A DNA stretch of 64,000 bases. It comes from an uncultured Gammaproteobacteria bacterium (GTDB lineage Bacteria > Pseudomonadota > Gammaproteobacteria > Pseudomonadales > Pseudohongiellaceae). The position numbers and the translations under genes are program-made. Below, one piece after another: positions 24,621 to 39,649 of the stretch (its first letter is position 1; every line of letters starts with the position of its first letter). The stretch covers positions 62,001 through 126,000 of the forward strand of contig CAJXSF010000002.1 in assembly GCA_913061515.1 (NCBI GenBank), written 5' to 3'. The notes under the pieces were generated by a model. It made no database searches and had not been told where the DNA came from. It worked only from the letters and a program-made list of their open reading frames with translations.

Positions 24621-25445
24621 GTGAAAGTTTCATTGAATAAGATATTTGCAAGTTTATTGGTGTCTGGTGCTGTGATGGCCTCAGCGCAAGCCGCTGAGTT
24701 TGTGCGATACGAACAAAACGGCAGCATTTCGTGGGGTGAGCTGGTCGGGTCCACTATCCACCAACTGACCGACGCGCCCTATTTGGGTGGCACACATACA
24801 GGCCAAAGCGTTGCTCAGTCAGCGGTAAAACTAAAAGCCCCTGTCGATCCTGAGCTTGTGGTAATGACGGCGCTGAACTTCCGTAGCCACCTCACGGGTG
24901 AACCCGCAGAGTACCCTGGTCTTTTTGTTGTACCTGCTAACTCTATCATCGGCCCAGACGAGCCTATGATTATCCCTGCCGATAGCAGTAACTTTCACTA
25001 TGAAGCCGAAGCGATTGTCGTCATCGGCAAGCACGCGGAAAACGTCTCGATAGAAGATGCTCGTGATTACATCTTTGGTGTAACGGCAGGCAACGATGGT
25101 AGCGCTCGTGATTGGCAAGGCGCTGACTTACAGTGGACGCGAGCCAAGGGCAGCAAAACTTTCAATGCGGTGGGGCCGAAGATCGTGACGGACCTAAACC
25201 CGAACGAACTGCAGATTGAAGGCCGACTCAATGGCGAACGTCGCCAAGGCGAAAATACATCGGATATGCTCTACAACTTTGACTACATGGTGAGTTATAT
25301 CTCTCGTTATTTTACTTTAGAACCTGGTGATTTAGTCTGGTCTGGCACTATGGGCCGCACACAGCAAATGGTTGGAGGCGACGTCTACGAGGTCGAAGTT
25401 GAGGGTGTTGGCATTCTGCGCAACCCTATCGAACAAGCAAAGTAA
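24621..25445 (+). CDS. Fumarylacetoacetate hydrolase-family protein with Sec signal peptide
   Basis: GTG start with AGGAGGTGAT Shine-Dalgarno at 24608-24617; signal MKVSLNKIFASLLVSGAVMASAQAA; HYEAEAIVVIGKHAENV...VTAGNDGSARDWQ...KGSKTFNAVGP. Confidence 0.88.
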   Translation: MKVSLNKIFASLLVSGAVMASAQAAEFVRYEQNGSISWGELVGSTIHQLTDAPYLGGTHTGQSVAQSAVKLKAPVDPELVVMTALNFRSHLTGEPAEYPGLFVVPANSIIGPDEPMIIPADSSNFHYEAEAIVVIGKHAENVSIEDARDYIFGVTAGNDGSARDWQGADLQWTRAKGSKTFNAVGPKIVTDLNPNELQIEGRLNGERRQGENTSDMLYNFDYMVSYISRYFTLEPGDLVWSGTMGRTQQMVGGDVYEVEVEGVGILRNPIEQAK

Positions 25446-25535: not shown

Positions 25536-27293
25536 TCATTGCGCACTCGCACTTGCGAACACACTCTGATCTACATACTTCCAATAGACTTGTCCGAAGA
25601 ACATTTCATCCCAGCTTTGATCGCCCCAAGGCACCGTTCTTGCTGGGTCGGGGTTTGACTTGTTCTGAGTTGAATTATCATAAGCGCCTGTGGCCACTAC
25701 CTTGGTACCGGCGGGCACAAATACTGGCTCTTCTAGCTTGTACTCGATCTGCCAGTTGTAGTTATAGTTAGCGATATTGATCAGCTCTTGTATCGTGCCA
25801 TCAGGGTGATGGGCAGCGAAACTCATGCTTTTACCGCGGAAATGCATATGCGGAATGAAGCTAGTTAGATAGGCGTCTGCATCGATAGTAATCGCTTGCT
25901 GCTGCACAAAATCAGGGTCATATGCTGGGATGTCGGTCCATGTTTGCGGGAAAATACAGGCGCATTCACTCGAACGACGCTCCTGGGGAATCTCGTCATC
26001 TGGGTAGAACCAGATACCGATCTCACTCGCATCCACGGTCTCTTTACCCATCGTCGTGTAATGCAGCTGCAGAGCGAGCTTCGAGCCAGCTTTGAGCAAC
26101 CCTCCAGTGTTCGGGGGCTCTACGTGTGGCTCAGCACCCGGAATATAAGGGGTGATGTAGGCAAGATTAGGATCCACTTCACCTAAGAAACCGCGCGGAC
26201 GCGTTTCACCGGGCTGCATCACCGCATTGAGGGTGTGATGCAGGACTGTGCGATCCCCCGCCAAATACTGACTGGCTCGCACCCACCGATCGCGCTCTAA
26301 GCCTTCGAATGGCACTACCACGGTGATGTAGTCGAGTACACCAGTAGCCGGAATCGTTTGCGGCGGCACTTTTACGATTAAGTCTGGCTCGCCAAACTCC
26401 CATTTGGACTCAGGCCATGTCAGTTGCGCCAGCGGGTCAACAGTTCCATCGATAGGCGAACCTGCCTCTATCCAATGCACAAGTTTTTGCTGATCTTCTA
26501 CCGCCACATTGTAATCGTTAGAGAAGGCCCCCACATGAGGGTCCAACTGACCTGGCGGCATACGCTTGGTCATCAATACTTCGCGGATCATCGGCGACCA
26601 CCCTTGCAACATGGCATGGCTATCCATCGCAAAAGGCGCGATTCCACCATCTCGGTGACAGCTGGCACAATTCTCGGCAATGATTGGTGCAATGTCTTTG
26701 CTGTAGGAGATCCCCTGGGACATATGCTGGGCAGTATTCGGGTAGGTTACATCAGAGCCACTCATCGCAACTACCGGAGTGCTAATCGATTGCCCGGCGT
26801 CTATTTCACTAACGGCCTGCTCTAGGCCTGCAACAGTGCCTCGATAGATCACCTCGAAACTACGCGGATCAAACAAAAAGGCTTCACCGCTTTTGTCGAC
26901 TCCCATGGCCTCAGAGACAATTTGGCTATCGTCAATTAAGACCGGCAGGGTAACACCTAAACGCTGCGCTTCTTGCTGAACGGTATCGCGTGCTTGGCCA
27001 AGAGGATTGAGAAACATGAACTCAAAGCCTTGCGTATCATATTGCGCTTGCAGACGCTGAAAGTCAGTGACCGCCGCACGAGTTTGGGCGCTACCATTGA
27101 CCTGGACTAAGAAAGCAATGGCCTTGTGGTCATCGTACCAAGCCATGTGATGAAACTTGCCATTGTGGTCAAGTAGTGAGAAATCCCCTACACGTTCGGC
27201 CGCATAAAGTGCTCCCGTGGCGAGCGCACAAACGGTTGCAACAGCAGCTATAACAAGCCGTTGTCTTGTTCTATTTATTTTAGCTTTAAGCAT
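25536..27293 (-). CDS. Exported redoxin-fold / CXXCH / DBH-like (copper type II monooxygenase-like) fusion, copy 1
   Basis: Signal peptide; thioredoxin-like N-terminus; NCASCHRDGGIAPF; C-terminal VLHHTLNAV, LALQLHYTTMG, PHMHFRGKSM, WDEMFF; ATG at 27293 preceded by GGAGGTG. Confidence 0.82.
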   Translation of the reverse strand: MLKAKINRTRQRLVIAAVATVCALATGALYAAERVGDFSLLDHNGKFHHMAWYDDHKAIAFLVQVNGSAQTRAAVTDFQRLQAQYDTQGFEFMFLNPLGQARDTVQQEAQRLGVTLPVLIDDSQIVSEAMGVDKSGEAFLFDPRSFEVIYRGTVAGLEQAVSEIDAGQSISTPVVAMSGSDVTYPNTAQHMSQGISYSKDIAPIIAENCASCHRDGGIAPFAMDSHAMLQGWSPMIREVLMTKRMPPGQLDPHVGAFSNDYNVAVEDQQKLVHWIEAGSPIDGTVDPLAQLTWPESKWEFGEPDLIVKVPPQTIPATGVLDYITVVVPFEGLERDRWVRASQYLAGDRTVLHHTLNAVMQPGETRPRGFLGEVDPNLAYITPYIPGAEPHVEPPNTGGLLKAGSKLALQLHYTTMGKETVDASEIGIWFYPDDEIPQERRSSECACIFPQTWTDIPAYDPDFVQQQAITIDADAYLTSFIPHMHFRGKSMSFAAHHPDGTIQELINIANYNYNWQIEYKLEEPVFVPAGTKVVATGAYDNSTQNKSNPDPARTVPWGDQSWDEMFFGQVYWKYVDQSVFASASAQ

Positions 27294-27423
27294 GCCCACC
27301 TCCAATCAAACGACTATTCGGTCAATTATCCTAGCACCCGCAATTGGCAAAGCAAACGACATCGGGTCAGTGAAGGCATTTATTCATTCTCACTTTCTCG
27401 AATTCAGGAATCAGCAAGGCATT

Positions 27424-28095
27424 TCAAGAGTTATTTTGCGCAAAAGAGTCGGAAAGCAACATATCTAGGGCATGACGCAGATTTTTCTGAAACTCTACTT
27501 CACTAAAGAAGTCACACAAAAAACCTTGCAGAAGATGATAAAACAGGCCAAAGATACTGGTGACCGCGGTCCCAATATAGAGATTAGGCGATACTTTCCC
27601 TTGCTTAATACCGCGTTTTAACAATTGCGCTAATTTGTCATAAGCCGCATTGAAGATTATCTCGATATCATGGCGACGTTGCGGGTTTACTGGGAACGAC
27701 AGCTCCTTCAATACAGTCCTAGACAACACCCGATCTTCTTTGTGGTAGTCGATATGCACTTGGAAAAAGCACATCAACTGATCGGTAACAGCGGTCTCCG
27801 GATTAGTGTCATCGAAGGCCGCTTCTGTCATCTGTAATAAAGTCTCACGAAACACTAACACTAAAAGATCTTCTTTGCCTTTAGCGTATAGATAGAGCGT
27901 ACCTAAGCCGATCCCCGCCTCTTCTGCGATATCTTGGATCGTCGTATTTTGAAAGCCTTTGCTGATAAACAGCTGGCGAGAAACACTGATTATGCGCTGA
28001 AGCCGAAGACGCTTTTTACGCTCTCGCAGCCCCGGTTTCGCCAACATTGTCTCTTCCGTTGGGGATTGCGCCTCTGTAACGCCTTGTTGATCCAT
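27424..28095 (-). CDS. TetR/AcrR-family transcriptional regulator
   Basis: RIISVSRQLFISKGFQNTTIQDIAEEAGIGLGTLYLYAKGKEDLL helix-turn-helix. Confidence 0.95.
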   Translation of the reverse strand: MDQQGVTEAQSPTEETMLAKPGLRERKKRLRLQRIISVSRQLFISKGFQNTTIQDIAEEAGIGLGTLYLYAKGKEDLLVLVFRETLLQMTEAAFDDTNPETAVTDQLMCFFQVHIDYHKEDRVLSRTVLKELSFPVNPQRRHDIEIIFNAAYDKLAQLLKRGIKQGKVSPNLYIGTAVTSIFGLFYHLLQGFLCDFFSEVEFQKNLRHALDMLLSDSFAQNNS

Positions 28096-28161
28096 GGTTT
28101 CACTCTTTCTCTTTACTTCTAAATTTCATTTCCGTGAGTCGTAGATTGGGACTAGTTCGTT

Positions 28162-28182
28162 TAAACTCTAACACAGAGTTTA
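28162..28182. promoter_or_regulatory. Candidate TetR-family operator (perfect inverted repeat)
   Basis: TAAACTCT-AACAC-AGAGTTTA: 8-bp perfect arms, 5-nt spacer, in the divergent tetR/glutaredoxin intergenic region. Confidence 0.6.
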
Positions 28183-28251
28183 GACACAATTGTTTACACG
28201 TTGTAGGAAAATAGCGTTTTGCTATGCCACAATACAGCGTTTTATCCCTAA

Positions 28252-28653
28252 ATGGACGCTAACATGAGCGAAAACGAAACAGGCAGCCATCCCTCTCCTC
28301 TTAGCGGACGAGAAATCATTGATCAGCACATCGCAAACCCGGAGAGAGGCATCGTCCTGTTCTCCCTTAGCTGGTGTTCTTTTTGTCGTGCGGCAAAACA
28401 ACTGCTAACGCAATTGGACCTCACCTACAAAGTGATAGAGTTAGACCAAGGCGAATTTCTTGAACCAACAATGCAGCGGGAAGTGCGAACACGCTTACTT
28501 GAGCTAACAAAAGCCAACACATTGCCCCAGTTATTTGTCGCAGGGCAGGTCATTGGCGGCTACACCGACCTTGCAGCAGCTTATAAAAATGGGAGCTTAG
28601 CAGCCCTTCTCGAACGCCACGGTATCGCCTCGAAACTTACTCCCTCGTTATGA
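28252..28653 (+). CDS. Glutaredoxin
   Basis: GIVLFSLSWCSFCRAAKQLL...NTLPQLFVAGQVIGGYTDL. Confidence 0.92.
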   Translation: MDANMSENETGSHPSPLSGREIIDQHIANPERGIVLFSLSWCSFCRAAKQLLTQLDLTYKVIELDQGEFLEPTMQREVRTRLLELTKANTLPQLFVAGQVIGGYTDLAAAYKNGSLAALLERHGIASKLTPSL

Positions 28654-28669
28654 GGGCTGGAAAACCTCA

Positions 28670-29098
28670 ATGGATATTTTGATCCGCTATCTACATCTCT
28701 TTGCGGTACTCGTTTTGGCAGGCACCCTCATCATTGAGAACATCGCGATCGCCAAAACAGTGGGAAAAGAAGATATTCGGCAGTTACTGAAAGTCGATGC
28801 GGTGTATGGTTTAAGCGCTATTATCGTTTTGCTTTGCGGCCTTGCATTATGGCTGTGGGTTGGGAAACCGAGCGCGTTCTACAATAGCAATCCTATCTTT
28901 CATGCAAAACTAAGCCTTTTCGTGCTTGTGGGGCTGCTATCGATTTACCCAACAGTATTCTTCATGAAACAGCGCAAAACTGACAGTGACACGATTGCGG
29001 TGCCGGCAGGCGTAGTACGGGTGCTTCGAATTGAATTGGCATTATTGGCTGTCATCCCATTGCTCGCTTTTCTTATGGCACGGGGTATTGGTGCATAA
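28670..29098 (+). CDS. DUF2214-like small membrane protein
   Basis: MDILIRYLHLFAVLVLAGTLIIENIAI... four hydrophobic segments. Confidence 0.75.
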   Translation: MDILIRYLHLFAVLVLAGTLIIENIAIAKTVGKEDIRQLLKVDAVYGLSAIIVLLCGLALWLWVGKPSAFYNSNPIFHAKLSLFVLVGLLSIYPTVFFMKQRKTDSDTIAVPAGVVRVLRIELALLAVIPLLAFLMARGIGA

Positions 29099-29105
29099 GC
29101 GAAGT

Positions 29106-29789
29106 CTAAGAGCAAAGGCGTTCTTGTATCCAAGCCGAGATGTCTTGAATCTCCTCCAAACAAACCGAATGCTCCATAGGGTAATGTTTGTACTGCGTGG
29201 CATAGCCTAGCGCACGCAAGTCTTCTTCTGCTTTACGGCCCAAGGACTCATTGACAACTGGGTCGCGAGTGCCATGACACACCAATATTGGCAGCCCTTT
29301 GTTGATAGGGCTAGGCTCGACAGTCGCAACCGTTGGGAAGTAGCTAGATAAGGATAGAGCTCCGGCTAAGGGCTTGCTATAACTCAAGGCCGCTTGCAAT
29401 ATCACAGCGCCCCCCTGAGAGAAGCCCGCCAAGAGTATCCGATCGCTTGGCGTGCCGCGTTGGATTTCTCTTTCGATCAAGGCATGCACAGCTTCGGCCG
29501 AACGAGTTAACTGCACTGTATCTACTTTACGCCCTACATCCATTTCTAGGATATCGTACCAAGCGGGCATGACATAGCCACCATTGACCGTTACCGGTAT
29601 GGAGGGCGCATGAGGGAATATAAAGCGCAACTTCAAAGTGGAAGGTAGGCGCAACTCAGGCACGATACCCGCAAAGTCATGACCATCGGACCCTAGGCCA
29701 TGTAACCATATGATTGCTGCGTCTGGCTCCGCGCCTTCGGGGATAACACTCTCAACTGCAGGGAGATAATTCATGTGCGCCATTTCCAT
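29106..29789 (-). CDS. Phospholipase/carboxylesterase family alpha/beta hydrolase
   Basis: IIWLHGLGSDGHDF; LLAGFSQGGAVILQAAL; CHGTRDPVV; HYPMEHSVCLEEI. Confidence 0.92.
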   Translation of the reverse strand: MEMAHMNYLPAVESVIPEGAEPDAAIIWLHGLGSDGHDFAGIVPELRLPSTLKLRFIFPHAPSIPVTVNGGYVMPAWYDILEMDVGRKVDTVQLTRSAEAVHALIEREIQRGTPSDRILLAGFSQGGAVILQAALSYSKPLAGALSLSSYFPTVATVEPSPINKGLPILVCHGTRDPVVNESLGRKAEEDLRALGYATQYKHYPMEHSVCLEEIQDISAWIQERLCS

Positions 29790-29968
29790 CGTTGCAAAAT
29801 GGGCATTGTCTCAAATCCAGCCCATCATGCCAGTGAAAATCTTTCGGTTTAGGAGAATGAGACTGCTTCGGGCAATACAGTGGTAGAATAAGCACCGCAG
29901 ATAGAAGCGTTAATTATTACCATGCCAACTCTTTGAGAGGCTGGCACATTGGGAGTAGACAAGTAAAA

Positions 29969-30367
29969 ATGGAAGACGTAATCGACTTATTACGCGAAGC
30001 CAATGAACCGGTTCCCGTCCCGCTGGAGCTCCCGGACGAGGACCTCTTAATCGAAATAGAGGAAGCGCTTTATGTCGCCCTCCCCGATGACTTACGCCTT
30101 TATTTAGCCACCGTTAGCGATGTTGTCTATGGCCATTTGGAGCCGGTGACCGTGACAGATCCAAACTCTCATACCTATTTGCCCGAACTGGCAGCGGTCG
30201 CTTGGAGTATGGGTTTACCAAGACGACACTTGCCCATATGCGAAGCTAATGGCGGCTATTACTTTATCAAACACGATGGAAGCGTTGGTTTTTGGGACCA
30301 GTCCGATAGCGATGAAGAATGGGACACTATTTGGCACTGGATAACCGATGTTTGGCTAGTAGACTGA
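29969..30367 (+). CDS. SMI1/KNR4-family protein
   Basis: EEALYVALPDDLRLYLATVSDV...GGYYFIKHDGSVGFWDQSD...IWHWI; start chosen at MEDVIDLL. Confidence 0.75.
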   Translation: MEDVIDLLREANEPVPVPLELPDEDLLIEIEEALYVALPDDLRLYLATVSDVVYGHLEPVTVTDPNSHTYLPELAAVAWSMGLPRRHLPICEANGGYYFIKHDGSVGFWDQSDSDEEWDTIWHWITDVWLVD

Positions 30368-30378
30368 GGAAACACTCA

Positions 30379-30810
30379 ATGTCGCAAGAAATTTTTGTTA
30401 CCTGCCCGCACTGTCATCGCAAAAATCGCATGCCTGCGGAAAAACTTTCGGCGCAAGGACAATGTGGCGCATGTAAAAAGCCCTTGTTTGCGGGCAAACC
30501 CGTCACACTCAAGCAAGCAAATTTCAATTTACACTTAGGGAGCGACATCCCTATTGTGGTCGATTTCTGGGCGCCATGGTGTGGCCCTTGTCGGCAGTTC
30601 GCCCCTACTTTTGCGGCCTCTAGTGCAACACTTGAGCCGAGCGTTCGACTTGCAAAGGTAAACACTGAGGAAGAGACGGCAATAGCACAGCGGTATGGAA
30701 TTCGCAGCATTCCCACATTAATGATGTTCAAAAACGGCAAAGAAGTCGCAAGAGTGTCCGGTGCAATGCCAGCTGCCCAGTTTGAGCGTTGGGTACGCGA
30801 GCAATTGTAA
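30379..30810 (+). CDS. trxC: Thioredoxin 2 with N-terminal zinc ribbon
   Basis: CPHCHRKNRMPAEKL...CGACKKPLF; VVDFWAPWCGPCRQFAPTF. Confidence 0.93.
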   Translation: MSQEIFVTCPHCHRKNRMPAEKLSAQGQCGACKKPLFAGKPVTLKQANFNLHLGSDIPIVVDFWAPWCGPCRQFAPTFAASSATLEPSVRLAKVNTEEETAIAQRYGIRSIPTLMMFKNGKEVARVSGAMPAAQFERWVREQL

Positions 30811-30932
30811 AGTGGTGGGCGCGGCTAGCGTCTGCTTAGCTGAGCCATACCGATACTTTCTCAGTCGTAGTACACTGATACTTGTTCGCCTGCGATAATG
30901 CTGCGGGTATTTAATAACAAGAGGTTTAACTC

Positions 30933-31625
30933 ATGACATTGGCCAAAATACTGGCGCTATTTAGCGCTTGTGGATTCCTTGCTGCCTGTGGCTCTAACGA
31001 TTATCTTGCGCAACCGCGCGCCGAAATGTTCCCAGGGACGCAGCAACAAAGCCTGCAATCCGCTAGCCATTGGCAACTGCTTGCAGAAAATGAGTCCAAT
31101 GCCATCGCCCGTAGCTTAGGGGATGGTGGAGGTGTCATTACTCCCTCAATTTATTTAGGCAATGCCGCAAGCACAGCGGGTGACTTTCAGAGCGCTTATC
31201 ACAATATGCTACTGAGCCAGCTCATCGCTCAGAATATCGATGTCATGCTAAGCCGAGAAAATGCATTGTTTACGCTGGAGTATGATGTGCAAGTCGTTGA
31301 GCATGCTAGCCGTAACTTATTGCCGCCACGCCCAGGCACATTCTCTAGTTTTCTCTTAGCAGGGGCAGCCATTCATGATGCTCAATACTGGGGTGACAGT
31401 AGTCTGATTCTAGTCCCTATCGCAGTGGCTGGTGATCTTTGGAGCAAGTTCAATAGCGATACCGCCGCAAGCACCACAGAGGTCATCATTACAACCCGCG
31501 TGCTCGACAGCCAACAAATCGTGCACTCTAGCAATCACGTTTACTATTTTGACAGAGACGATATCGCGCAATACAAAGGCGAGGGCAGAGTATTCGATGT
31601 CGTGAACACAAGGGGTGGTCAATAA
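30933..31625 (+). CDS. Lipoprotein (FlgO-associated type)
   Basis: Lipobox FLAAC; 230 aa; overlaps next gene by 1 nt (TAATG). Confidence 0.65.
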   Translation: MTLAKILALFSACGFLAACGSNDYLAQPRAEMFPGTQQQSLQSASHWQLLAENESNAIARSLGDGGGVITPSIYLGNAASTAGDFQSAYHNMLLSQLIAQNIDVMLSRENALFTLEYDVQVVEHASRNLLPPRPGTFSSFLLAGAAIHDAQYWGDSSLILVPIAVAGDLWSKFNSDTAASTTEVIITTRVLDSQQIVHSSNHVYYFDRDDIAQYKGEGRVFDVVNTRGGQ

Positions 31626-32158
31626 TGCGCAAGACATTTCACTGGCTGGCTATTACGATCATCGCCGCAACACTGGCAGCCTGCATGAGCGACCCCTATG
31701 AAACGGGCATCGATCTCATTACAAGCACCAATCGAGCAGCAGCTAATAACCTAATCCGCATGGCAGGCCCAGAGATAAACCCAAGCAATAATATTATTGC
31801 GGCCAGTTTCGCTTCGATCGATGATTTAACGGAATCGTCAACTTTTGGTCGCGTAGCATCCCAACAACTTACCTCACAGTTTACAGCTGCCGGGTATTCG
31901 GTTGTCGAAATGCTGCTTCGCAATAGCGTTTATATTAGCGAGAGACAAGGAGAGTTTTTGCTGTCTAGGGCCATCAATGAAATCAGTGCTGAGCACAATG
32001 CCCATCTAGTGCTAGTTGGCACCTATGCCGTAGGTGAAAGCAATGTGTTTGTGACGGCGAAACTTATTCGCACCGCCGACAGTGTCATTATTGCTTCCCA
32101 TGATTATGTTCTGCCATATACACGCGATATGCGCACGCTATTACGGCAGTGGCAGTAA
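31625..32158 (+). CDS. FlgO-like lipoprotein
   Basis: Lipobox LAAC; ...AASFASIDDLTESSTFGRVASQQLTSQFTAAGYSVVEMLLR... FlgO-like pattern. Confidence 0.7.
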   Translation: MRKTFHWLAITIIAATLAACMSDPYETGIDLITSTNRAAANNLIRMAGPEINPSNNIIAASFASIDDLTESSTFGRVASQQLTSQFTAAGYSVVEMLLRNSVYISERQGEFLLSRAINEISAEHNAHLVLVGTYAVGESNVFVTAKLIRTADSVIIASHDYVLPYTRDMRTLLRQWQ

Positions 32159-32159
32159 A

Positions 32160-33956
32160 CTACTGCTGCACAGGTTTCAAAACACGAATGTAATGGCTAA
32201 ATATTTCGTCGTAGGTTGTAATCCCTACCTTAACGTCGGCCTCTGGGTCGACGTTCTGCGGATTCGAAGCAGAGTTGTCATACACAGTTTCCGAAATCAG
32301 TCGTGACCCCGCAGGCAGGAGCAATCTTTCACGCATTTTGTAGTTCATCTGCCAATTAAAATTGTAGTTCGCGACATTGATCAGCCGCTGCACAGTTCCG
32401 TCAGGAAATTGCGCAGAGATAGTCATACTCTTGCCCCGAGTGTGCGTTTGCGGCGCAAAACTCTCAACCCACACATCGTTCTCAAACACTGGCGTCTGTG
32501 CATGCTCAACCTGATTCACCACGCCCGCAGGAATTGAGAACTGCGAGTTCAGCGCAATCACATTGTGCACTTCATACTCTGGAGCGGTGTCGCGGAAATA
32601 CAGCCCTATTCGGGTAGCATCGATAGTGTCTCTACCGCCCGTGACATAGCGTATTTTGAACGATAGATCGCGGTCCTGGCGCAGCAAAAATGCAGAGTCA
32701 TCTGCGAACTTTTCTTCCGTGCTAGGAGGCACATAAAGACTAATGAACTCAGTGTTCTCGGGACTTACCAAACCGGCTTCATCTTTCTCGACAATATTAG
32801 GATCAACCGCAAACACTAACAAACTGTGCAATACGGATCGGTCGCCCACATTATACGCAACAGCCTGCACCCATTGATCTTGCGTCAGGTTCAAGTCCGC
32901 GCGCCGAATTTTAAAGTCGACCATACCAGTGGCTGGCACCTCTATCGCTGGCACATCAACAATCAGGTCTGGTTCGCCTAGCGCCCACTGCTCACTGAGC
33001 TCTTCCTGTTCTCTAAGTGGATCCCCTTCCCCGGCATTGCGTGCACCACTATCGATCCAATGAACCAGTGTAATCAATTCCTCATCGGTGATGTGGTGAA
33101 TATCCTCCCACGCCCCTTCCTGCTCATCGATTTGCCCTGGAGGCATTCGGTGAGTAATCAATACTTCACGAATCATGGGGCTCCAGCCTTGAATCATTCG
33201 GTGGCTGACCATCGCCCAAGGGGCCAAACCATCCTCGATGTGACATGTCGTGCAGCGACGTTTGAGGATCGGTGCAATTTCATCTTCATAGGAAATTTGT
33301 CGATCCCCAAAGCGTTCCTGATAAAGGTAGGCAATAGGGGCCCCCTCGACGGCTGGTAACTCTTCTTCGGGCAAATCGTCACCTTCAAGTAATGCGATCA
33401 GAGCTTGTTCAAGATAAGGAGTCTCGGGGGGCGTTGCAGGCACCGCAATGCCACTAGCCAAAGGGCCTCGATAAAGAACATCGTGAGACTCAGGGTCTAG
33501 AATGAAGGCTTCATCGGTAGTAGTAACTTGCAAAGATCGTGCGACCAATTGAGCGCTATCTTGCAATACGGGCAAATCGACACCGATTCTGGCCAATTCA
33601 TCGATTATTTGCTGGCGGCTCTGTCCAGGGATAGGGTTTAGCATTAAGACCTCCACACCCTGTTCACTGTAGCGGGTGTGGAGATCCTGTAGGAGGGGGA
33701 TGGCTTGTTGCGATGCAGGCTCGCCATTGGCTTGCACAAACAACACAACGAACTCAGATTCACCATAGCGACTTAACTGATGAAAGGTGCCGTGTTGATC
33801 CAACAATGCGAAATCGGTACTTCTCTGCGCCATTGCTGACACAGAGACTAATGTGGCAAAAAACAAGCCTAAATACTTTAGGCAATTGATCATATTTATT
33901 CGAATTCTCATAGACTGCACTTGCTCATTTACGACATTGATCTCGCATTTAAACAT
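32160..33956 (-). CDS. Exported redoxin-fold / CXXCH / DBH-like fusion, copy 2 (apparently lacking the copper ligands)
   Basis: Colinear paralogue of 25536-27293; RCTTCHIEDGLAPW; VLHSLLVF, LSFKIRYVTGG, PQTHTRGKSM, YDEIFS; true start may be an internal ATG at 33911 or 33893. Confidence 0.8.
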   Translation of the reverse strand: MFKCEINVVNEQVQSMRIRINMINCLKYLGLFFATLVSVSAMAQRSTDFALLDQHGTFHQLSRYGESEFVVLFVQANGEPASQQAIPLLQDLHTRYSEQGVEVLMLNPIPGQSRQQIIDELARIGVDLPVLQDSAQLVARSLQVTTTDEAFILDPESHDVLYRGPLASGIAVPATPPETPYLEQALIALLEGDDLPEEELPAVEGAPIAYLYQERFGDRQISYEDEIAPILKRRCTTCHIEDGLAPWAMVSHRMIQGWSPMIREVLITHRMPPGQIDEQEGAWEDIHHITDEELITLVHWIDSGARNAGEGDPLREQEELSEQWALGEPDLIVDVPAIEVPATGMVDFKIRRADLNLTQDQWVQAVAYNVGDRSVLHSLLVFAVDPNIVEKDEAGLVSPENTEFISLYVPPSTEEKFADDSAFLLRQDRDLSFKIRYVTGGRDTIDATRIGLYFRDTAPEYEVHNVIALNSQFSIPAGVVNQVEHAQTPVFENDVWVESFAPQTHTRGKSMTISAQFPDGTVQRLINVANYNFNWQMNYKMRERLLLPAGSRLISETVYDNSASNPQNVDPEADVKVGITTYDEIFSHYIRVLKPVQQ

Positions 33957-37261: not shown

Positions 37262-39649
37262 ATGACGTCTATAAATTCCATTCATTCGCTGCACTCTAAA
37301 CTGTCAATTTCCAGATATCGTCACCTACCGCGATATTGTAGCGCATTATTACTGTCCACTTTTTTCTATATTCCCTGTTCGATTGCGCAAGATGTCTTCT
37401 CTGAGCCACTTTTTGGAGAGCAAAGCCTTAACGGTGGCTTCGCCCCCGACCCTGCTCGCATCGATATCGTTGCGGGAGGCTCGACTGATGCCGCCAGCAC
37501 TGAGTCAAGTTGTACAGGCTATATTGCGGTCGAGCAGCCCGACTATAGGATACATTACACGCCTGATACCTATGCGCTAGGAATCCTCGTAGCCAGCGAT
37601 GTCGATACAACACTTATCGTCAATACGCCCGATGGGAGCTGGGAGTGCAATGATGACTTCTCGGGGCTTGAGAACAACAATTCTGGAGTCTTATTCAACA
37701 CGCCACTGACAGGGCAGTATGATATTTGGGTGGGGACCTATAGTGCCGCAGATGCAGGTGCACAAGCACAACTGATCATTACCGAGCTGCCTCAGAGCGA
37801 ATGGCTCAGCCTCTCAAATGAATATCACGATAGCAATGACAGCGTTGCTGTGGCCAGTTCAATCCTTATAGAGGGCAGTGAACAACAGGGCAGCCTGGAC
37901 CCAATGGACAGCACACTCAGTAATTATGGGTATTCAGACACTTACACCTTTACTGGCCAAACAGGTCAAAACGCGATTATCGATTTAAGTTCTGATGAAT
38001 TTGATACTTATCTAGTATTGCGCACTCCCAGCGGTGAAGAGCTTAGCAATGATGACTTCGAAGGCAGCACGGCACGCTCCCTACTCTCTGTGCCATTAAC
38101 TGAGTCTGGGGAATTTGAAATCGTCGTGTCGAGCTTCATGAGTGGCGAGACAGGCCCGTACACGCTTTCTTTAGCGCTTGATGAAAATAATAGCATTGCG
38201 GCGGCAAGGGTCGAATCGGGCGAGTTGTCGTCGTCGGATGAGCAATTAGCAAGCGGTGAGTATATCGATCTCTATTCATTCGATGGACGCCCCGGTCAGC
38301 GCCTCCAGGCTGACTTGCGCTCAGAAGACTTTGATACTTATTTAATCCTCATCGCTCCCTCTGGAGAGCAATTTGAAAACGATGATATGGATTCGATCAA
38401 CCGTAGCTTTCTTGATATGACTTTATCTGAATCTGGCAGTTACCAATTGATAGTGACATCGTTTAGTGAAGGCTCTACCGGTGAGTACTCGCTACAAATT
38501 GATCATGGCGCAGCGAACGACAATCCAAGTCGAGAGTCTAATATCCGCAGTCTCGCCATCGGTCAATCCATAGAAGGACTGCTTAGCGAAGAAACGAGCT
38601 CACGAGTAGACAACAAATTAGAAGATACTTATTGGTTTGCTGGACAAGCCGATGAGACTGTACGCATAGATCTCAATTCAGATGACTTCGACACCTTTCT
38701 ACGATTAGTGACCCCTAGCGGTGAACTTATAGAAAACGATGACTTCGAAGGCAGCCTACATACTTCTTCTATTTCTTTAACATTGCGCGAGGCGGGTCGC
38801 TATCGAGTGGTAGTCACCAGTTACGACGCCGGAGACACAGGGCAATATGAAATAGACCTGCAATCACAAGCTATGCCAATCGTCTCTGCAAGCAACAGCG
38901 GTGGGCAAGTCTATGGAATATTTGCCGGTATTAGTGATTACCCAGGCAGTGCGCAAGATCTAAGTTACACAGATCAAGATGCCATAAGAGCGAGAGACGC
39001 GCTCATCAATGGCGCCGGAATGCAAGAAAACAACGGCATACTTTTGCTCAATAGCGACGCCACACTGGACAATTTTCGTGCAGCGATTGAACAAGTCGCT
39101 GCACGAGCTACAGAACAGGACACGGTCGTGCTGTTCTACTCGGGGCATGGCAACCGCGTCGAACGAGCAGGAGGCCCAAATAGCGCAGACCCTGATGGTT
39201 TAGATGAAACAATTGAGCTCTACGATGGCGCGATGCTCGATGATGAGCTAGCTTTTTTGTTCGACACTGTGCAGGCCGGTACCACATTGCTTGTACTGGA
39301 CTCTTGCTTTAGTGGCGGGTTTGCGAAAGATTTAGTGTCGCGCCCCGGCAGAATGGGGCTTTTCTCCTCTGAAGAAGACGTGACCTCACAAGTTGCTGCG
39401 AAATTTCGAGCTGGAGGCTACCTCTCTGTTTTCTTTGAAGAAGCACTTGGAGGGTATGCAGATTTTGATGACAATGGCGAGCTCACAGCCATAGAATTAA
39501 GCGAATACTTGCACGATCGATTTCGCAATGACGTAAAATCAAGTAGCGTGGATCAGTTTGTTCGTACCAGCGGCCCTCAATCTGGCTATCAACACCTTGT
39601 TGTTGATCGAGGAGGAGTTGGTCCCTACAGCATTTTGTTTAACCATTAA
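37262..39649 (+). CDS. Exported caspase-like (peptidase C14) protein with N-terminal PPC-like repeats
   Basis: Repeats with DFDTYLxLxxPSGExxxNDD; C-terminal VVLFYSGHGNRV (His) and LLVLDSCFSGGF (Cys); EF-hand-like DFDDNGELTAIE. Confidence 0.9.
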   Translation: MTSINSIHSLHSKLSISRYRHLPRYCSALLLSTFFYIPCSIAQDVFSEPLFGEQSLNGGFAPDPARIDIVAGGSTDAASTESSCTGYIAVEQPDYRIHYTPDTYALGILVASDVDTTLIVNTPDGSWECNDDFSGLENNNSGVLFNTPLTGQYDIWVGTYSAADAGAQAQLIITELPQSEWLSLSNEYHDSNDSVAVASSILIEGSEQQGSLDPMDSTLSNYGYSDTYTFTGQTGQNAIIDLSSDEFDTYLVLRTPSGEELSNDDFEGSTARSLLSVPLTESGEFEIVVSSFMSGETGPYTLSLALDENNSIAAARVESGELSSSDEQLASGEYIDLYSFDGRPGQRLQADLRSEDFDTYLILIAPSGEQFENDDMDSINRSFLDMTLSESGSYQLIVTSFSEGSTGEYSLQIDHGAANDNPSRESNIRSLAIGQSIEGLLSEETSSRVDNKLEDTYWFAGQADETVRIDLNSDDFDTFLRLVTPSGELIENDDFEGSLHTSSISLTLREAGRYRVVVTSYDAGDTGQYEIDLQSQAMPIVSASNSGGQVYGIFAGISDYPGSAQDLSYTDQDAIRARDALINGAGMQENNGILLLNSDATLDNFRAAIEQVAARATEQDTVVLFYSGHGNRVERAGGPNSADPDGLDETIELYDGAMLDDELAFLFDTVQAGTTLLVLDSCFSGGFAKDLVSRPGRMGLFSSEEDVTSQVAAKFRAGGYLSVFFEEALGGYADFDDNGELTAIELSEYLHDRFRNDVKSSSVDQFVRTSGPQSGYQHLVVDRGGVGPYSILFNH
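37931..38180 (+). repeat. PPC-like domain repeat 2 of the caspase-like protein
   Basis: YSDTYTFTGQTGQNAIIDLSSDEFDTYLVLRTPSGEELSNDDFEGS...GPYTLSL (a more divergent repeat 1 precedes at ~37480-37770). Confidence 0.75.
38258..38507 (+). repeat. PPC-like domain repeat 3
   Basis: EYIDLYSFDGRPGQRLQADLRSEDFDTYLILIAPSGEQFENDDMDS...GEYSLQI. Confidence 0.75.
38614..38870 (+). repeat. PPC-like domain repeat 4
   Basis: LEDTYWFAGQADETVRIDLNSDDFDTFLRLVTPSGELIENDDFEGS...GQYEIDL. Confidence 0.75.

What the first reader, a model, noticed from the sequence alone, without database searches (positions are those of the whole stretch)
25536..33956. Two exported redoxin/CXXCH/DBH-like paralogues; copy 2 has lost every apparent copper ligand
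The proteins at 25536-27293 and 32160-33956 align end to end: signal peptide, thioredoxin-like fold, one CXXCH, DBH/PHM-like C-terminus. Copy 1 keeps residues matching the PHM/DBH copper sites: HH (VLHHTLNAV), a central His (LALQLHYTTMG), HxH (PHMHFRGKSM) and Met (WDEMFF). At the same columns copy 2 reads VLHSLLVF, LSFKIRYVTGG, PQTHTRGKSM and YDEIFS, so one His of each His pair, the central His and the Met are replaced. The surrounding scaffold is kept (RGKSM, NxANYNxNWQxxYK, PAGxxxxxxxxYDNS). CXXCH is retained in both. Copy 2 therefore looks like a redeployed, possibly regulatory or electron-transfer-only, paralogue rather than a decaying one.
Basis: partly seen in the sequence, partly recalled or inferred. 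Interest (0 to 1): 0.72.

Follow-up and report, generated by a model that had tools for sequence, protein, structure and literature searches.

The report
Copper-stripped relative of PHM/DBH enzymes
This bacterium exports a protein built like the copper enzymes that make peptide hormones and noradrenaline, but four of its six copper-holding residues have been replaced in ordered steps while its heme-binding motif and overall shape are kept by selection, so it is probably a working helper protein rather than a dying gene.

Summary
Copy 1 (25536-27293) and copy 2 (32160-33956) are end-to-end homologues (37% identity): signal peptide, cysteine-less redoxin fold, CXXCH cytochrome domain and a PHM/DBH-type C-terminal half (AlphaFold models match solved PHM/DBH with probability 1.00). 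Copy 1's six residues correspond to the PHM copper ligands and are invariant (HHHHHM) in nearly all intact relatives. Copy 2 reads H-S-R-Q-H-I: four of six replaced, not all.

Copy 2 is not decaying. Its orthologue is in 14 of 14 genomes of the genus, with dN/dS 0.04-0.15. Its lineage is a single clade (100/100) that does not group with copy 1 (p-AU 0.0003). The sites went in order: Pseudohongiella-type relatives read HSRHHM (electron-transfer site CuH lost, catalytic site CuM kept); the window's genus then lost CuM.

A second paralogue lineage in the same bacterial family lost the sites independently and in the opposite order (HHH[RK]NM, then HQQRNM). Both lineages kept CXXCH and put Arg/Lys at a vacated ligand position. 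A split version (PHM half plus redoxin-heme half as separate exported proteins) exists in six genomes.

Most likely copy 2 is a heme-bearing, copper-free partner of copper-competent paralogues. A single composite copper site is not excluded.

The parts
25536..27293 (-). Copy 1: exported redoxin-fold + CXXCH cytochrome + PHM/DBH-like protein (585 aa), all six copper ligands present
26655..26669 (-). Copy 1 CXXCH heme-c motif (C209-H213); likely distal Met in RMPPG (M245, 26559-26561)
   Evidence: distal Met by analogy
26235..26240 (-). Copy 1 H352-H353 = PHM H107, H108 (CuH)
26061..26063 (-). Copy 1 H411 = PHM H172 (CuH)
25842..25850 (-). Copy 1 H482-x-H484 = PHM H242, H244 (CuM)
25602..25604 (-). 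Copy 1 M564 = PHM M314 (CuM)
32160..33956 (-). Copy 2: same architecture (598 aa); 4 of 6 copper ligands replaced; directly downstream of leuS
33240..33254 (-). Copy 2 CXXCH heme-c motif (C235-H239); RMPPG Met M271 at 33144-33146
33096..33098 (-). Copy 2 H287: clade-specific fixed His in the cytochrome domain (31/31)
32823..32828 (-). Copy 2 H377 (kept, = H107) and S378 (= H108 replaced)
32649..32651 (-). Copy 2 R436 (= H172 replaced by Arg; Lys in one relative)
32442..32450 (-). Copy 2 Q503 (= H242 replaced) and H505 (= H244 kept)
32202..32204 (-). Copy 2 I585 (= M314 replaced; Ile, Thr or Val in orthologues)
32193..32195 (-). Copy 2 H588: new His fixed in the whole HS clade (Gly in 95% of copper-competent members)

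Best explanation
Copy 2 is a conserved exported heme-c protein on a PHM/DBH-type scaffold whose dicopper centre was dismantled in two ordered steps: first CuH (H108 to Ser, H172 to Arg/Lys), then CuM (H242 to Gln, M314 to Ile/Thr/Val). It should not hydroxylate by the PHM two-copper mechanism. I infer that it works as a non-hydroxylating partner: its heme domain carries or relays electrons, and its rigid PHM-like half docks it to copper-competent paralogues or their substrate. Shown here: fold match, ligand mapping, ordered loss, clade, purifying selection, universal CXXCH. Inferred: heme occupancy, absence of copper, partner role.
For: Ligand mapping. Folds: copy 1 and copy 2 models (pLDDT 90 and 89) match PHM/DBH in the PDB with probability 1.00. 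Ordered loss: HHHHHM in 107 of the 149 non-identical aligned matches, most of the rest being fragments or the lost-ligand lineages; HS[RK]HHM in 16 genomes of two sister genera; HSRQH[ITV] in 14/14 genus genomes. HS clade 100/100. dN/dS 0.04-0.15 in copy 2 and 0.06-0.15 in stage-1 proteins. CXXCH in every full-length member. Cytochrome domain not clearly faster than copy 1's (1.13) while PHM domains are (1.8). Separability in trans: six genus genomes encode the PHM half and the redoxin-heme half as two adjacent proteins, each with an apparent signal peptide. Copy 1 is found in 13/14 genus genomes. Parallel second lineage keeps CXXCH and puts Arg/Lys at a vacated copper ligand. In rat PHM, mutating any CuH ligand to Ala inactivates the enzyme (PMC6123673).
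Against: No biochemical evidence for heme, copper content or a partner. Not in an operon with any copper-competent paralogue: copy 1 is 5 kb away here and farther in some relatives. The cytochrome and PHM confidence intervals overlap. H377 and H505 stay invariant and H588 was gained, which would fit a re-formed metal site.
Confidence: 0.55

Rival explanations
1. Copy 2 still binds one copper in a composite site made from the kept ligands of both domains (H377 and H505), perhaps with the new H588 or Q503, giving a mononuclear copper or copper-heme protein.
For: Rat PHM H108A with citrate forms a single composite copper site from H107, H242 and H244 (PMC6123673). Stage-1 proteins keep exactly those three plus M314; copy 2 keeps H107 and H244 and adds H588, all invariant in the clade.
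Against: Arg/Lys sits at the old H172 position, which disfavours a nearby cation. M314 drifts between Ile, Thr and Val. No coordinates were available to test whether H588 can reach the site.
Confidence: 0.22
2. Copy 2 is a periplasmic binding or sensing protein (for the substrate or product of the copper enzymes) in which the PHM fold is used only for ligand recognition.
For: Scaffold residues are kept (21 of the 40 near-invariant PHM-domain columns are unchanged in the whole HS clade). The cysteine-less redoxin fold also looks like a scaffold.
Against: No adjacent sensor kinase or transporter with conserved linkage. It does not explain why CXXCH is always kept.
Confidence: 0.15
3. Copy 2 is a decaying paralogue drifting after loss of catalysis.
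For: PHM domains evolve about 1.8 times faster than in copy 1.
Against: dN/dS 0.04-0.15, intact in 14/14 genomes, fixed replacement residues, two nested stages each conserved.
Confidence: 0.03

Closest known systems
Peptidylglycine alpha-hydroxylating monooxygenase (PHM; PDB 1PHM, 1OPM) and dopamine beta-hydroxylase (4ZEL)
   Same: Two-domain fold in the C-terminal half; copy 1 has the same six copper ligands in the same order; the HxHxxGK and DEM motifs are shared.
   Different: Bacterial proteins add a cysteine-less redoxin fold and a CXXCH cytochrome domain; copy 2 lacks four of six ligands.
Laboratory PHM mutants H107A, H108A, H172A (6ALV, 6AO6, 6AMP) and M314I (1YI9)
   Same: Copy 2's lineage changes three of the same positions (H108, H172, M314; the last to Ile in the window).
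   Different: Natural, conserved and combined changes; Ser and Arg rather than Ala; H107 is kept.
Bacterial cytochrome-PHM proteins without redoxin domain (L192; own-genome C17, C18, C8 and C2 short paralogues)
   Same: CXXCH plus PHM-like half with intact ligands (HHHHHM).
   Different: No redoxin domain; only 22-26% identical to copy 1 in the own-genome cases.
ResA/AhpC-TSA redoxins (3U5R, 2YWI, 1ST9)
   Same: N-terminal domain has this fold.
   Different: No conserved cysteine in the domain anywhere in the family.
MOXD2, a mammalian DBH relative repeatedly lost (PMC4125168, title and abstract)
   Same: A DBH-family paralogue that loses function.
   Different: MOXD2 shows loss-of-function mutations; copy 2 is intact and under selection.

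Membership tests
PHM/DBH copper type II ascorbate-dependent monooxygenases | PHM two-domain fold | tested here: met
   Foldseek probability 1.00 for both copies; copy 2 E 3e-15 to 3MLL, TM-score 0.67 on the target
PHM/DBH copper type II ascorbate-dependent monooxygenases | CuH ligands H107, H108, H172 | tested here: not met
   Copy 2 reads H-S-R; copy 1 reads H-H-H
PHM/DBH copper type II ascorbate-dependent monooxygenases | CuM ligands H242, H244, M314 | tested here: not met
   Copy 2 reads Q-H-I; copy 1 reads H-H-M
PHM/DBH copper type II ascorbate-dependent monooxygenases | Pfam PF03712 above gathering score | tested here: inconclusive
   Copy 1 19.8 and copy 2 18.4 bits against a cut-off of 23; the own-genome PHM-only protein scores 34
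PHM/DBH copper type II ascorbate-dependent monooxygenases | Copper-dependent hydroxylation with ascorbate or another reductant | not testable with these tools
   needs purified protein
Monoheme c-type cytochrome | CXXCH and a plausible distal Met | tested here: met
   CXXCH and RMPPG Met invariant in A2 and A3; heme itself not tested
AhpC/TSA redoxin | Redox-active cysteine(s) in the redoxin domain | tested here: not met
   No conserved Cys outside CXXCH, apart from the CACxF of copy-1-type members, which lies in the PHM half

The most novel reading that the evidence does not exclude
The stage-1 proteins of Pseudohongiella-type genomes (HSRHHM) are natural monooxygenases that have lost the electron-transfer copper CuH but keep the catalytic copper CuM, with the attached heme c supplying the electron that CuH supplies in PHM. 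Copy 2 is the next step, where catalysis is gone and only the heme relay remains.
Probability: 0.22. Interest if true: 0.82.

Novelty: new variant of a known kind. Interest (0 to 1): 0.62.

Why it matters
In PHM and DBH two coppers about 11 angstroms apart must cooperate, and how the second electron crosses is debated. One bacterial family offers natural, selected proteins with ligands for both sites, for CuM only, for CuH only and for neither, on one scaffold with a CXXCH heme domain, in two independent series of opposite order. That allows natural single-site variants to be assayed instead of damaged laboratory mutants. It also shows that a PHM-fold domain can be kept by selection without most of its copper ligands, so annotating such genes as monooxygenases would be wrong. 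My literature searches (open-access papers only) found no description of this bacterial family or of such ligand loss.

Tried and rejected
Decay/pseudogene: rejected by dN/dS, intact ORFs and 14/14 presence. Recent duplication of copy 1: rejected by AU test, p 0.00026. Operon or fixed pair with copy 1: the two are linked on one contig in seven genus genomes but 5-23 kb apart, with unrelated genes between, and stage-1 genes have other neighbours. Thiol redox function of the redoxin domain: no conserved cysteines. Sequence-only PDB searches reach the redoxin fold but not PHM, so the mapping needed a bridge protein and fold search. Promoter and terminator scan: nothing above shuffles. NCBIfam gave no name. 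A search for precedent of ligand loss in another copper enzyme gave nothing useful.

Full report
Observation. Copy 1 (25536-27293) and copy 2 (32160-33956), both on the minus strand, are homologous over their full length (37% identity, E 1e-131). Copy 1 carries H352, H353, H411, H482, H484 and M564; copy 2 carries H377, S378, R436, Q503, H505 and I585 in the same columns. Four of six are replaced, so 'lost every ligand' is too strong.

Are these the copper ligands? Direct sequence searches of the PDB do not reach PHM. I used a bridge: a bacterial protein (L192) that scores above the Pfam cut-offs for PF01082 and PF03712 aligns with rat PHM 1OPM (E 2.8e-7) at VHH, QVHY, HTHHLGK and DEM, the CuH and CuM ligand motifs. 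The family profile aligns to L192 with 99.9% probability (copy 2's profile 99.7%), placing the six columns on those motifs. AlphaFold models of both copies are confident (pLDDT 90 and 89) and their top matches are PHM and DBH structures, probability 1.00. The six residues are invariant in 40 diverse relatives including short paralogues only 22-26% identical to copy 1.

How widespread is the change? The genome holds at least seven loci with the redoxin-heme-PHM architecture (one of them split into two genes) and four shorter ones without the redoxin domain. Among 149 non-identical aligned matches, 107 read HHHHHM; the rest are fragments or the lineages described here. Copy 2's orthologue is present in all 14 genomes of the window's genus and always reads HSRQH followed by I, T or V. 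Sixteen genomes of two sister genera have an orthologue reading HSRHHM (15 genomes) or HSKHHM (one): CuH ligands lost, CuM kept. In 392 genomes spread over 143 genera of the order, the lineage appears only in two genera of this family.

Tree. With the ligand columns removed, all HS sequences form one clade (bootstrap 100, SH-aLRT 100). Placing them with copy 1 is rejected (p-AU 0.00026). The larger quick tree puts the C68:10886 paralogue, which is fully copper-competent, next to the clade. All other outgroup relatives and PHM itself keep the ligands, so loss is the derived state: CuH first, CuM second. The monophyly of stage 2 is only moderately supported (78/55) because of one divergent paralogue (L154); without it the group has 99/98.

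Selection. dN/dS of copy 2 between genus members is 0.04-0.15 (copy 1: 0.02-0.09); stage-1 proteins 0.06-0.15. Many dS values are near saturation, so the close pairs weigh most. Across 13 genomes that hold both copies, copy 2 evolves 1.84 and 1.77 times faster than copy 1 in the two PHM domains but 1.13 times (0.78-1.64) in the cytochrome domain. This suggests, without proving, that the heme domain is the best preserved function. Only twelve residues are fixed in the HS clade yet rare in copper-competent members; four of them (R234, L244, W283, H287) are in the cytochrome domain, and H588 is a new His three residues after the old M314 position.

A second, independent case. The own-genome paralogue at C18:24933-26603 reads HHHKNI. 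Its lineage has HHH[RK]NM across several genera of the family, HHQRNM in two genus members and HQQRNM in four others: CuM lost first, CuH second, the opposite order. These proteins are also under purifying selection (dN/dS 0.02-0.09) and keep CXXCH. In both lineages one vacated ligand position became Arg or Lys, which could replace the copper's positive charge (inference).

Mechanism. In PHM, mutating any CuH ligand to Ala gives inactive enzyme (PMC6123673), so copy 2 should not hydroxylate by the two-copper route. What every full-length member keeps is the CXXCH domain. A natural fission in six genus genomes splits the protein into a PHM half and a redoxin-heme half, adjacent and each with an apparent signal peptide, which suggests that the two halves can work in trans. 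I therefore favour copy 2 as a heme relay or docking partner for copper-competent paralogues (confidence 0.55). The main rival is a single composite copper site: rat PHM H108A with citrate forms one from H107, H242 and H244; stage-1 proteins keep these three, and copy 2 keeps two and gains H588.

Limits.

Noticed in passing
G000:C18:24933-26603 (L010:7823-9625 +; L004): Second paralogue lineage with independent copper-ligand loss in the opposite order (HHHRNM/HHHKNM, HHQRNM, HQQRNM); in the window's genus an intact short HHHHHM paralogue lies next to it.
   Followed up: yes
L012:10487-12497 - (G000:C17); L193-L198: The redoxin-heme-PHM protein is split into two adjacent exported proteins, PHM half first, in six of 14 genus genomes.
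   Followed up: partly
family-wide: Large expansion of redoxin/heme/PHM-like proteins: first-look candidates range from none to 41 per genome in this bacterial family, mostly 10 or more in the genera that carry copy 1.
   Followed up: partly
window 32193-32195 and 33096-33098: New His residues (H588, H287) fixed in the copy 2 clade; possible alternative metal or heme-related site.
   Followed up: partly
window 24621-25445 +: Fumarylacetoacetase-like protein (by eye) with an apparent signal peptide, next to copy 1 in the genus genomes whose region was examined.
   Followed up: no
window 37262-39649 +: 795-aa ORF that looks like an exported caspase-like (C14) peptidase with repeated PPC-like domains; judged by eye only.
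   Followed up: no
window 30933-32158 +: Two lipoprotein-like ORFs (one FlgO family) convergent with copy 2, conserved beside it in several but not all genus genomes.
   Followed up: no
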